In this document: piece by piece, positions 4,447 to 41,455 of the stretch
Numbering within the stretch: position 1 is the stretch's first letter
Layout of the letters: each line of letters opens with the position of its first letter
IMG/VR virus record: IMGVR_UViG_3300045747_000527
Span: 124,001-188,000 of that record
DNA from: a virus
Direction: 5' to 3' (one strand)
Length of the DNA: 64,000 bases
Translations under genes and position numbers: made by a program
Notes under the pieces: generated by a model
The model's database searches: none
Seen by the model: only the letters and a program-made list of their open reading frames with translations
Told to the model about the DNA's origin: nothing

Positions 4447-6459
4447 CTAGAACATTACCTTGACCGTTCTGGTGAACGATCCCTTTACCTTGCAGAGTAG
4501 GTGACCCCTCTGCGTAGATGAGAAGCCGATGCCACTCAACTGACTCGCTGACTCCTTCGTCTTTGACTTCGATGCAACGATCTCCAGAACCTTGCGGTGC
4601 TGGTTCAGCTCGGGCAGGAGGAACTCGTTGTAGAACCCCCTGGCCGACCCTGCGTTCAAGCACTCCCTCAACATGAAGAAGTAGTGTTTGTTACCCGTGC
4701 CGTCCGTCTCTCCCCAATAGTTCGGGGACAGCATCACTGCCTCAACAGGAGTGAACTCCTGTGTCTTGATACCCCAGGCTTCTTTGGCTACCTGAGATGA
4801 TGAAAGCGCCGGGACGATCTTGAAGCCAGTCTCGTGTGAATACTGGATATCCGCGACGGCAACATTCTCCCCGCCCCTAACTGCCTTGGGGTATGAGAGA
4901 GTGTGCACCACTCCGTCAAATTCGATCTCTACCTCGAAGCCCACGTCCACTGTCTCTCGCTGACAGAACTGATGGACGCTAAGGCGGTAGACCCCCGGCT
5001 TCATTCGTTTTCGATCTAGATAGCAGATATTCTCCACCGGAGTTTTGCTTTGCCCGCCCCCGGCGTTCATGTCTACGTCCAAGGCCCCGGTGCCGGAGTT
5101 CTTAGCTCCAAAGTAAATCTCAAACCCTCCAGGTTCCTTCATGTGAAAATCGAGGTCATCGTAATTAGACCACGACAGAGAACACCTGAGGTCCCCGTCC
5201 ACCTTGCCACCCGCGGACTTGACCCGCTCCTTGATTGAATCCGCAAAGTCCCCCTGGTAAGACCAGCTGAAGTTGTTCTTCCACTTGAACAGCCGCTTAG
5301 CAGTAAGGTCGCAGGGCGCGATCAAACTGACGAAGCGATTGAGGTGTTCGTTCTCCACCATCACCTCTAGCGAGGTCGCCTTCGGCAAGACACTGGAGAT
5401 GAAGTCCTCAATACCGATCTCCTCGACCTTGTCGAGCTTCTTTGCCGACGCCGCCTTGGGCGTGATTGTGTCGAACACGTCAGCATCCAGCTGCTTCCTG
5501 GTCTCGCGGTCTGCGAAGAGGACGTCGTTGATGGTGATGTCGTCAAGAGTCGCAAACCGTCGTTCAAGCGCAGAGGTCAGGCCAAGCTCCTCTACCTTTG
5601 CCCGAGCGTTCTGAATCATGGCCTTGGTGACCAGGGCAGTCGGCCGTCTATAATTGATCGGTGCGACCTTGGTTTCGAATGCCTTGACCGCCTCGTCCAT
5701 CTCCTTCCCCTCAGACAAATCCACCAGTAGCGTTCCTATGACGGTGTTGCGGATACGGGACACGGATAGATGCGTACTGGCGGCGAGTGACCAGCAAAAG
5801 AGAGACTGCTTCTTGGCCGAGGTCAGCTTGTCAAAGTCCACCTTGAGCTTCCGGAACTTATCGAGCACAGGCTTGTGCTCCTCCCCGCGGTAGAGGCTGT
5901 TCTGGCCGATGAGTTCGAGAACAGTATCGACGGACTCCAGGCTGAGCTCCTGAAGAGAGCGGAGCATGACATCATAGGTTGCTCGCGCTTCACCGAGCCG
6001 GGTTCCGATGTCCCTCTTGGAAGCAACGATACCGTCAGGAAGTCTGAAGTAGAAGTGTTCCCACTCTTTGATCCCAGCGTCTCCCTCTTCGTAATTCCTA
6101 TCCGTGCCGACCACGGATTCCGCATGAAGGTAGACGTTGTCCACGTCACAGGACTTGACGAACTCTGACATCGCGTCCGCTACTGGCTGGTAGTTGCCCG
6201 CCACCTTCACGTCCCACACGCTAACCAACTTGTGATCTTTGACGTACACGAGTCCGCCGATGTTCCGGATGAAGTGCCGGCAGCAAGAACAGTCGTGCTC
6301 TGTGCGTTCACGGAACTTGGGATTGGCACCTTCGGGAAAAGAAGACAGGTACGTCTCCCACAGCTTGTCTCCTTCAACCCTAACCCGAAGAAGCGTACCT
6401 CCTGCCACCATCTTGGCGAACTGCCGTTGTACCGCGGTCTTGATAAGTGTGAAATCCAT
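4447..6459 (-). CDS. Large conserved hypothetical with C-terminal DUF2135/YfaP-like beta domain
   Basis: A 670-residue protein. Near residue 58 there is a CSCCRHF cluster with conserved surroundings, suggesting metal binding. The middle is helical. Around residues 430-560 the sequence LRCSLSWSNYDDLDFHMKEP, then GALDVDMNAGGG and MKPGVYRLSVHQF, resembles the YfaP/DUF2135 beta-sandwich found in surface-associated bacterial proteins. This is the first gene after a minus-strand GGTATAAG promoter (6542-6550) and starts a three-gene unit. Function unknown; the domain resemblance is by eye. Confidence 0.75.
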   Translation of the reverse strand: MDFTLIKTAVQRQFAKMVAGGTLLRVRVEGDKLWETYLSSFPEGANPKFRERTEHDCSCCRHFIRNIGGLVYVKDHKLVSVWDVKVAGNYQPVADAMSEFVKSCDVDNVYLHAESVVGTDRNYEEGDAGIKEWEHFYFRLPDGIVASKRDIGTRLGEARATYDVMLRSLQELSLESVDTVLELIGQNSLYRGEEHKPVLDKFRKLKVDFDKLTSAKKQSLFCWSLAASTHLSVSRIRNTVIGTLLVDLSEGKEMDEAVKAFETKVAPINYRRPTALVTKAMIQNARAKVEELGLTSALERRFATLDDITINDVLFADRETRKQLDADVFDTITPKAASAKKLDKVEEIGIEDFISSVLPKATSLEVMVENEHLNRFVSLIAPCDLTAKRLFKWKNNFSWSYQGDFADSIKERVKSAGGKVDGDLRCSLSWSNYDDLDFHMKEPGGFEIYFGAKNSGTGALDVDMNAGGGQSKTPVENICYLDRKRMKPGVYRLSVHQFCQRETVDVGFEVEIEFDGVVHTLSYPKAVRGGENVAVADIQYSHETGFKIVPALSSSQVAKEAWGIKTQEFTPVEAVMLSPNYWGETDGTGNKHYFFMLRECLNAGSARGFYNEFLLPELNQHRKVLEIVASKSKTKESASQLSGIGFSSTQRGHLLCKVKGSFTRTVKVMF

Positions 6460-29177: not shown

Positions 29178-29243
29178 TGGGGTAGGAAGGAATTGAACCT
29201 CCATTCACCTTGCGGCGCGTCCTAGACGTTAGACGACCACCCC
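29178..29243 (-). tRNA. 66-nt tRNA lacking a normal anticodon arm
   Basis: Acceptor GGGGTGG/CTACCCC, a Glu/Trp-like D-arm (TCGTCTAACG...AGGAC) and T-arm GGAGG-TTCAATT-CCTTC are intact. Between D- and T-arms only 16 bases remain; they form CGCC-GCAA-GGTG, a four-pair stem with a GCAA tetraloop, leaving no seven-base loop. Confidence 0.6.
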
Positions 29244-36963: not shown

Positions 36964-36968
36964 ATTTG

Positions 36969-37052
36969 CGGAAGACGGAAGTCTCGATCTCCAGACCCGA
37001 AGGTCCCATCTACTTTCGAAGTAGCGCCGGGTTCCCACCCAGTTCATCTTCC
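36969..37052 (-). tRNA. tRNA-Ser(CGA) with aberrant T-loop
   Basis: Class II; acceptor GGAAGAT/GTCTTCC, anticodon arm CTAC-TTCGAAA-GTAG, variable arm GGACC-TTCG-GGTCT. T-loop reads ATCGAGA, with A in place of T54. Confidence 0.8.
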
Positions 37053-37070
37053 AGAAAAATTTGTAGATTA

Positions 37071-39580: not shown

Positions 39581-39736
39581 GGAACAGAGGCAGCTGACAT
39601 TGATCAAGTGCCAGACGCCACACCTTTGATTCTCCGCCACCTAGCTCCACCACAGAGCCGTTGTCCCCCGGAAGTTACTCGGGGCTGCACAGGTGTCGTA
39701 GTTCTACGGGACTCTCGTCCTTGCTGCCTCTGTTCC
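39581..39736 (-). ncRNA. Structured ncRNA in the tRNA array, about 156 nt
   Basis: Closed by a perfect 14-bp stem GGAACAGAGGCAGC / GCTGCCTCTGTTCC. Inside on the minus strand, GTCCC...GGGAC encloses CCCCG-AGTAACTTC-CGGGG. It follows the larger structured element and precedes tRNA-Ile in the same transcript. Not recognised as a known RNA. Confidence 0.65.
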
Positions 39737-39743
39737 AAAAATT

Positions 39744-41027: not shown

Positions 41028-41246
41028 TCATCGATGCGTGCCCCACAACCGATATTGTTGGAGTGGCCTACCACGCAACGGGCGGCGATCTATGAGTTTT
41101 TCGGATGCCGCTTTTGCGCATCCGCGACATATTGGAGGAATCATCGTCTTAGGGTCAAAGCTACCTATCGGACCCGGCCACACCACGATTCCCGAGCACT
41201 GCGGACAATTACCGGCAAGCTCAATGATCAGTTCCTTTTCGGCCAT
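41028..41246 (-). CDS. Zinc-ribbon protein (72 aa)
   Basis: AAGGAGG before the ATG (MAEKELIIELAG). CPQCSGIVVWPGP and ICRGCAK complete a zinc ribbon. Downstream of the permuted tRNA in the same transcript. Unknown role. Confidence 0.7.
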   Translation of the reverse strand: MAEKELIIELAGNCPQCSGIVVWPGPIGSFDPKTMIPPICRGCAKAASEKLIDRRPLRGRPLQQYRLWGTHR

Positions 41247-41289
41247 GAGGACCTCCTTCAAATTGTGCTGGCGTCCTAGCCCCTAAGTT

Positions 41290-41382
41290 CCGCGGTACCA
41301 CAGACCAGAGGAGCTTTTGCCATTAGACGAAAACGGCATAGATTGCGCCGTCTCCTAGAATCGAACTAGGTTCTCCAGCGTG
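41290..41382 (-). tRNA. Candidate circularly permuted tRNA
   Basis: On the minus strand the T-arm CCTAG-TTCGATT-CTAGG and 3' acceptor AGACGGC come first, a nine-base linker follows, then the 5' acceptor GCCGTTT, TC, and a D-arm beginning GTCTAATGG. The acceptors pair over all seven positions. CTCC after the D-arm can pair with GGAG before the T-arm as the anticodon stem, putting the ends in the anticodon loop. Isotype not determined. Confidence 0.55.
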
Positions 41383-41455
41383 CGCCCCAGAACGGGATCG
41401 AACCGTTGGCCTCTTGCTCTTCATACAAGCGCTCTACCAACTGAGCTACCGGGGC
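41383..41455 (-). tRNA. tRNA-Phe(GAA)
   Basis: Acceptor GCCCCGG/CTGGGGC, anticodon arm CTTGT-ATGAAGA-GCAAG, T-arm AACGG-TTCGATC-CCGTT. Its 3' end directly abuts the permuted tRNA. Confidence 0.9.

What the first reader, a model, noticed from the sequence alone, without database searches (positions are those of the whole stretch)
41281..41382. Circularly permuted tRNA gene in a phage tRNA array
Directly visible: on the minus strand a perfect T-arm (CCTAG-TTCGATT-CTAGG) plus 3' acceptor AGACGGC precedes a 5' acceptor GCCGTTT plus TC and a D-arm start GTCTAATGG, separated by nine bases. The two acceptors pair at all seven positions. tRNA-Phe ends only ~12 bases before the T-arm, so no 5' half can lie upstream. 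CTCC and GGAG could form the anticodon stem, putting the open ends at the anticodon loop, as in known permuted tRNAs of red algae and archaea. Alternative: a fragment plus a hairpin ending in TTTT (a terminator-like look). Maturation would need circularisation and cutting; the WGR-ligase is a speculative helper.
Basis: partly seen in the sequence, partly recalled or inferred. Interest (0 to 1): 0.9.

Follow-up and report, generated by a model that had tools for sequence, protein, structure and literature searches.

The report
Permuted tRNA-mimic RNA in phage array
A phage tRNA cluster holds a short RNA gene whose two tRNA halves are in swapped order; it is more likely a tRNA look-alike of the bacterial Y RNA kind than a working tRNA, and it lacks the protein-binding stem that such RNAs normally carry.

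Summary
On the minus strand (41382-41267) T-arm, acceptor hairpin and D-arm follow each other in circularly permuted tRNA order. The pairing is better than reported: the "anticodon" stem is CCAGC/GCTGG (5/5), not CTCC/GGAG, and a 38-nt hairpin is inserted in the D-loop. Chance is excluded. A decoding tRNA that is circularised and recut is unlikely: no way of joining the ends gives U33, the flanks do not pair, and no RtcB gene is found. The order T-arm / acceptor hairpin / D-arm is the architecture of the tRNA-mimic module of bacterial Y RNAs (YrlA), a known circular permutation of tRNA (PMC11472068). The same scan finds such modules beside phage rsr genes and in many other viral contigs. The window copy is atypical: no Ro stem, no rsr, no YrlA hit, and it is absent from a collinear relative. 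Best reading: an orphan, non-decoding, Y-RNA-type tRNA mimic; main rival: a relic of duplicated tRNA genes. By-product: a set of permuted modules beside DUF7873 genes (9/9 viral and 4/4 bacterial loci), for which I found no description.

The parts
41375..41379 (-). outer ('anticodon-type') stem, 5' strand GCTGG
   Evidence: 5/5 Watson-Crick with 41267-41271; pairing probability 1.0 in free folding
41354..41370 (-). T-arm CCTAG-TTCGATT-CTAGG
   Evidence: the only perfect T-arm outside intact tRNAs in the array
41347..41353 (-). acceptor 3' strand AGACGGC
   Evidence: 7/7 pairs with 41331-41337
41338..41346 (-). 9-nt loop GCAATCTAT closing the acceptor hairpin; no CCA
   Evidence: such loops are mostly 3-25 nt in 62 other modules
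41331..41337 (-). acceptor 5' strand GCCGTTT
41273..41328 (-). D-arm GTCT ... GGAC with a long D-loop (AATGGC kept)
41278..41315 (-). 38-nt hairpin inserted in the D-loop (7 bp + 6 bp, GTAC loop)
   Evidence: pair probabilities 0.6-1.0; no credible D-loop insert was seen in the other modules scanned
41267..41271 (-). outer stem, 3' strand CCAGC
41382..41455 (-). intact tRNA-Phe(GAA) directly upstream; its 3' maturation would set the element's 5' end
   Evidence: role in maturation inferred
41028..41246 (-). 72-aa ORF (CxxC..CxxC, zinc-ribbon-like) starting about 20 nt downstream; an in-frame TTG start gives 77 aa to 41261
   Evidence: no relatives found in viral contigs

Best explanation
The element is a non-decoding tRNA-mimic RNA with the permuted architecture of the Y-RNA (YrlA) effector module: outer stem, T-arm, closed acceptor hairpin, D-arm, outer stem. 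It would be transcribed with the tRNA array, freed at its 5' end when tRNA-Phe is matured, and fold into a tRNA-like body with T-loop/D-loop contacts. Its acceptor stem is closed by a loop, so it has no CCA end and cannot be charged. It would act by being bound as a tRNA by tRNA-recognising proteins (modification enzymes, PNPase or other nucleases), as tether or decoy. The D-loop hairpin is the extra arm that could bind a partner, in place of the missing Ro stem. Shown: sequence, pairing, non-randomness, shared module architecture, lack of a possible U33 loop. Inferred: transcription, maturation, partners, function.
For: Complete tRNA-like pairing across both halves, with T- and D-loop consensus kept. 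No U33 in any joined loop. YrlA consensus has the same order of parts. The same scan finds such modules beside rsr genes in Caulobacter CcrColossus, Brevundimonas Domovoi, Rhizobium Y65 and Arthrobacter Atuin phages, beside the TROVE gene of G001, and in 34 contigs of a 120-locus pattern sample of viral contigs. 62 distinct modules in 41 loci have 5-6 different pair types at every acceptor position, which suggests that this order is maintained by selection elsewhere. Published: YrlA structure 6CU1 superposes on tRNA with a circular permutation (PMC11472068); its tRNA-like domain is modified by DusA/TruB and binds PNPase (PMC8394870).
Against: No Ro-binding basal stem or motif: the 5' flank is tRNA-Phe and the 3' flank a ribosome-binding site. 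No TROVE, no DUF7873, no YrlA hit at the locus. Absent from the collinear relative G012. No near-identical copy in IMG/VR. The D-loop hairpin has no credible counterpart in the other modules scanned. Some orphan modules lie on incomplete contigs, so 'orphan' is a weak class.
Confidence: 0.55

Rival explanations
1. Relic of rearrangement: two tandem copies of one Glu-like tRNA gene lost their outer halves, leaving 3' half + spacer + 5' half without function.
For: The array has at least one clear lone tRNA 5' fragment at 42083-42045 cut off by an HNH gene. D-arm and T-arm resemble the phage's own tRNA-Glu(CTC) and tRNA-Trp. Not conserved in the relative G012. No known partner gene.
Against: No decay: 21 of 21 pairs intact (acceptor 7, T 5, D 4, outer 5). 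Both breaks fall at the same place (anticodon loop), and an ordered hairpin sits in the D-loop without disturbing the fold. This is the only perfect T-arm outside tRNAs in the array, so the array is not full of relics.
Confidence: 0.27
2. Functional circularly permuted tRNA gene matured by circularisation and recutting, as in red algae and archaea.
For: Permuted halves assemble a full cloverleaf with a dummy loop; break at the anticodon loop as in some known permuted tRNAs.
Against: No joined loop has U33. Flanks do not pair. No RtcB found. Intact Glu tRNAs are already in the array. The 38-nt D-loop insert would remain in the tRNA.
Confidence: 0.05
3. Cis-acting 5' leader: the tRNA-like fold is a processing or regulatory structure in the mRNA of the small zinc-ribbon ORF that starts about 20 nt downstream.
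For: The ORF's ribosome-binding site follows the outer stem directly.
Against: Relatives of this fold elsewhere are stand-alone RNAs; the ORF has no known relatives, so linkage cannot be tested.
Confidence: 0.13

Closest known systems
Bacterial Y RNA YrlA (Rfam RF02553), tRNA-mimic module, PDB 6CU1
   Same: Order T-arm, closed acceptor hairpin, D-arm inside an outer stem; circular permutation of tRNA (PMC11472068).
   Different: Window element lacks the basal Ro-binding stem and an rsr gene, gets no YrlA hit, and carries a D-loop hairpin.
Phage Y RNAs beside rsr/TROVE genes (e.g. G001 L011, CcrColossus, Domovoi, Rhizobium Y65)
   Same: Same module in tRNA-rich phages.
   Different: Those examined mostly have a GCAR...TACTTC or TTCATCGC-type 5' motif next to the module; window has none.
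Circularly permuted tRNA genes of red/green algae and archaea
   Same: 3' half before 5' half, acceptor ends joined by a short spacer, break at the anticodon loop.
   Different: No usable anticodon loop, no pairing leader/trailer, no splicing machinery known.
Permuted two-piece tmRNA (RF04321)
   Same: Permuted gene with acceptor ends joined by a loop; two pieces held by pairing.
   Different: No Rfam match at the locus and no room for a tag reading frame.

Membership tests
YrlA / bacterial Y RNA | tRNA-like module in permuted order (T-arm, acceptor hairpin, D-arm, closing stem) | tested here: met
YrlA / bacterial Y RNA | basal stem formed by both ends, with the Ro-binding motif | tested here: not met
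   no motif, flanks not complementary beyond the 5-bp outer stem
YrlA / bacterial Y RNA | match to the Rfam model at its gathering score | tested here: not met
   no hit at the locus
YrlA / bacterial Y RNA | rsr (TROVE) gene in the genome | tested here: not met
   none in the 191-kb record, which may be incomplete; divergent Rsr not excluded
YrlA / bacterial Y RNA | binding of the RNA by Ro60/Rsr | not testable with these tools
   needs experiment
Circularly permuted tRNA gene | joined product has a complete anticodon loop with U33 | tested here: not met
Circularly permuted tRNA gene | complementary leader/trailer (bulge-helix-bulge) at the break | tested here: not met
Circularly permuted tRNA gene | circular RNA intermediate | not testable with these tools
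   needs RT-PCR or RNA-seq
DUF7873-linked permuted tRNA mimics (described here) | DUF7873 gene nearby, tandem modules, TTTAAACG-type 3' motif | tested here: not met

The most novel reading that the evidence does not exclude
The window element belongs to a kind of phage tRNA mimic that is independent of Ro60: a stand-alone permuted tRNA-like RNA matured as part of a tRNA array, whose D-loop hairpin replaces the Ro stem as protein- or target-binding arm. It would be one of several permuted tRNA-mimic lineages in viruses, next to the Ro-linked Y RNAs and the DUF7873-linked RNAs found here.
Probability: 0.22. Interest if true: 0.65.

Novelty: new variant of a known kind. Interest (0 to 1): 0.5.

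Why it matters
Annotation tools read such loci as broken or permuted tRNAs, or miss them; ARAGORN called no tRNA at all in L011, which holds several. Recognising the permuted module as a tRNA mimic shows that phages often carry tRNA look-alikes, some inside tRNA arrays, which bears on how they handle host anticodon nucleases, RNA repair and RNA turnover. Versions without the Ro partner, and versions tied to DUF7873, would show that the tRNA-mimic module is used with more than one protein.

Tried and rejected
Group I intron or permuted intron-exon: no Rfam hit near the window locus. Permuted tmRNA: no hit. Chance complementarity in a tandem array: rejected. Finding homologues by exact or degenerate patterns and by neighbouring proteins: none. 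The exonuclease neighbour led to G001, an otherwise unrelated phage, which by luck carries Rsr and Y RNAs. The conserved 670-aa protein at 4447-6459 (phrog_1735) as hidden Rsr: not supported; no Pfam match, and no module in the first 199 kb of phiCbK, which has this protein. Structure search of DUF7873: confident model, no significant match, only weak low-scoring resemblance to Cas7-like chains. Region 39598-39741 as structured RNA: z-score +0.6, rejected.

Full report
What is there. The window is bases 124001-188000 of a 191,220-base IMG/VR virus record with a dense tRNA array on the minus strand (36 tRNAs by ARAGORN). Directly after tRNA-Phe (41455-41382) the minus strand reads CAC-GCTGG-AGAA-CCTAG-TTCGATT-CTAGG-AGACGGC-GCAATCTAT-GCCGTTT-TC-GTCT-AATGGCAAA-[AGCTCCT..TCTGTG-GTAC-CGCGGA..AGGGGCT]-A-GGAC-G-CCAGC-AC, followed by the ribosome-binding site of a small ORF. 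The acceptor strands pair 7/7, the T-stem 5/5, the D-stem 4/4 (one G-U) and the outer stem GCTGG/CCAGC 5/5. With the 5/5 stem, the D-loop hairpin removed and a dummy loop added, ARAGORN calls a clean cloverleaf. Free folding gives outer stem and acceptor hairpin at probabilities near 1 and the D-loop hairpin at 0.6-1.0, while T- and D-stem compete with alternatives; z-score -2.5.

Not chance. Among 39 parsed intact tRNAs of this phage and of G001, a 3' acceptor fits the 5' acceptor of another tRNA 7/7 (at most one G-U) in 1 of 1482 ordered pairs, and never together with the anticodon stem. A scanner for T-arm, 3' acceptor, short loop, complementary 5' acceptor and D-arm finds only this element in the window, against 2 hits in 2.07 Mb of reversed sequence on both strands.

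Not a decoding tRNA. Joining the ends in any register with a 7-nt loop never puts U at position 33, with a 4-, 5- or 6-bp stem. The flanks beyond the outer stem do not pair. The D-loop insert would stay in the product. RtcB is not found in the record, and the WGR protein is of the ATP-dependent DNA ligase family. Intact tRNA-Glu(TTC) and tRNA-Glu(CTC) genes are already present.

What it resembles. A relative of a neighbouring exonuclease led to G001, an otherwise unrelated 211-kb phage. There several units of the same permuted order stand in tandem beside a TROVE (Rsr) gene, and Rfam's YrlA model matches three of them below its gathering score (28-36 bits). YrlA, the bacterial Y RNA, has exactly this order: T-arm, acceptor hairpin, D-arm inside a stem, extended by a basal stem bound by Ro60/Rsr (consensus). 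The literature describes its structure 6CU1 as a circular permutation of tRNA (PMC11472068) and its tRNA-like domain as a TruB/DusA substrate that binds PNPase (PMC8394870). Y RNAs have been reported in mycobacteriophages and suspected in a Listeria phage (PMC12282133), and TROVE proteins in jumbo phages (PMC7824862). 111 phage records encode an Rsr relative. The scanner finds modules beside rsr in CcrColossus, Domovoi (three), Rhizobium Y65 (three) and Atuin.

How common. 34 contigs hold permuted modules not explained by tandem tRNAs (a few of the listed rows are false or mixed). 12 of the 34 contigs have a TROVE gene and 10 have DUF7873, one of them both. The remaining 13 have neither, many being short fragments. 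Over 62 distinct modules in 41 loci, each acceptor position shows 5-6 pair types with pairing kept, though the scanner requires pairing and so leans towards it.

Where the window copy differs. It has no basal stem and none of the Ro motifs seen in the other phages, no TROVE or DUF7873 gene, no YrlA match, and a D-loop hairpin with no credible counterpart in the other modules scanned. The record may be incomplete and a divergent Rsr cannot be excluded. A collinear relative with 41 tRNAs (G012; terminase 74% identical over the best segment) lacks the element at the syntenic place and elsewhere in the 137 kb held. So it is not an established YrlA member; it works like one only in its tRNA-like module.

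Verdict. I favour a non-decoding permuted tRNA mimic (0.55) over a relic of duplicated tRNA genes (0.27), a leader structure of the downstream ORF (0.13) and a true permuted tRNA (0.05). Shown: sequence, pairing, improbability by chance, the U33 failure, the shared architecture. Inferred: transcription, release by tRNA-Phe maturation, tRNA-like fold in 3D, binding partners, decoy or tether role.

Side result. Nine module-bearing loci of one group carry a DUF7873 (PF25283) gene within about 60-260 nt of permuted modules, mostly two in tandem 140-160 nt apart (distances worked out from these coordinates). None of these nine contigs has a TROVE gene. A search with one DUF7873 protein alone brought four bacterial contigs (Micromonosporaceae, two Myxococcota, Candidatus Uabimicrobium), and all four have a module directly downstream, often ending in a TTTAAACG-type motif. 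YrlA aligns to one such module at 43 bits, below its cut-off, so they may be divergent Y RNAs with another partner. No paper in the library mentions DUF7873. Its predicted structure (pLDDT 84) has no significant match, so it does not look like Ro60.

Noticed in passing
L072 6838-8010, L082 5096-6230, L098 2470-3700, L134, L089, L136, L077, L156, L184 and bacterial L190-L193: DUF7873 (PF25283) genes sit beside permuted tRNA-mimic RNAs, often two tandem modules, with conserved CTCA-rich linkers and a TTTAAACG-type 3' motif; 9/9 viral and 4/4 bacterial loci. Possibly an undescribed RNA-protein pair.
   Followed up: partly
L011 18760-17850 (-) and L013 6300-6000 (-) of IMGVR 3300037245_001419: Phage Rsr (TROVE) gene followed by several tandem Y RNAs with a shared motif TGCAA..TTACTTCG; ARAGORN calls none of them.
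   Followed up: partly
L059 13547-13110 (-) of IMGVR 3300009037_000004: Three tRNA-like genes in normal order share a ~57-nt insert in the variable region (ACCCGC...TCTCTTCGG...GGGCCTACAAGA); one has a ~15-bp acceptor stem and no U33.
   Followed up: no
window 29178-29243 (-): tRNA-like gene whose anticodon loop appears to be replaced by a GCAA tetraloop (CGCC-GCAA-GGTG); Rfam tRNA 36 bits.
   Followed up: no
window 42083-42045 (-): Lone tRNA 5' fragment (GGTCTGG-TA-GCTC..GAGC) running into an HNH endonuclease gene; no matching 3' half found nearby.
   Followed up: partly
window about 36965-37055 (-): tRNA-Ser(CGA) not called by ARAGORN or by the Rfam scans.
   Followed up: no
L059 about 6080-5690 (-): tmRNA-like gene inside the tRNA array of the relative G012 (GGGGATG...CATCTCCACCA), by eye.
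   Followed up: no
L002 432-566: tRNA-like gene in normal order (GCTATAT...ATATAGC) of about 135 nt with a long internal insert.
   Followed up: no
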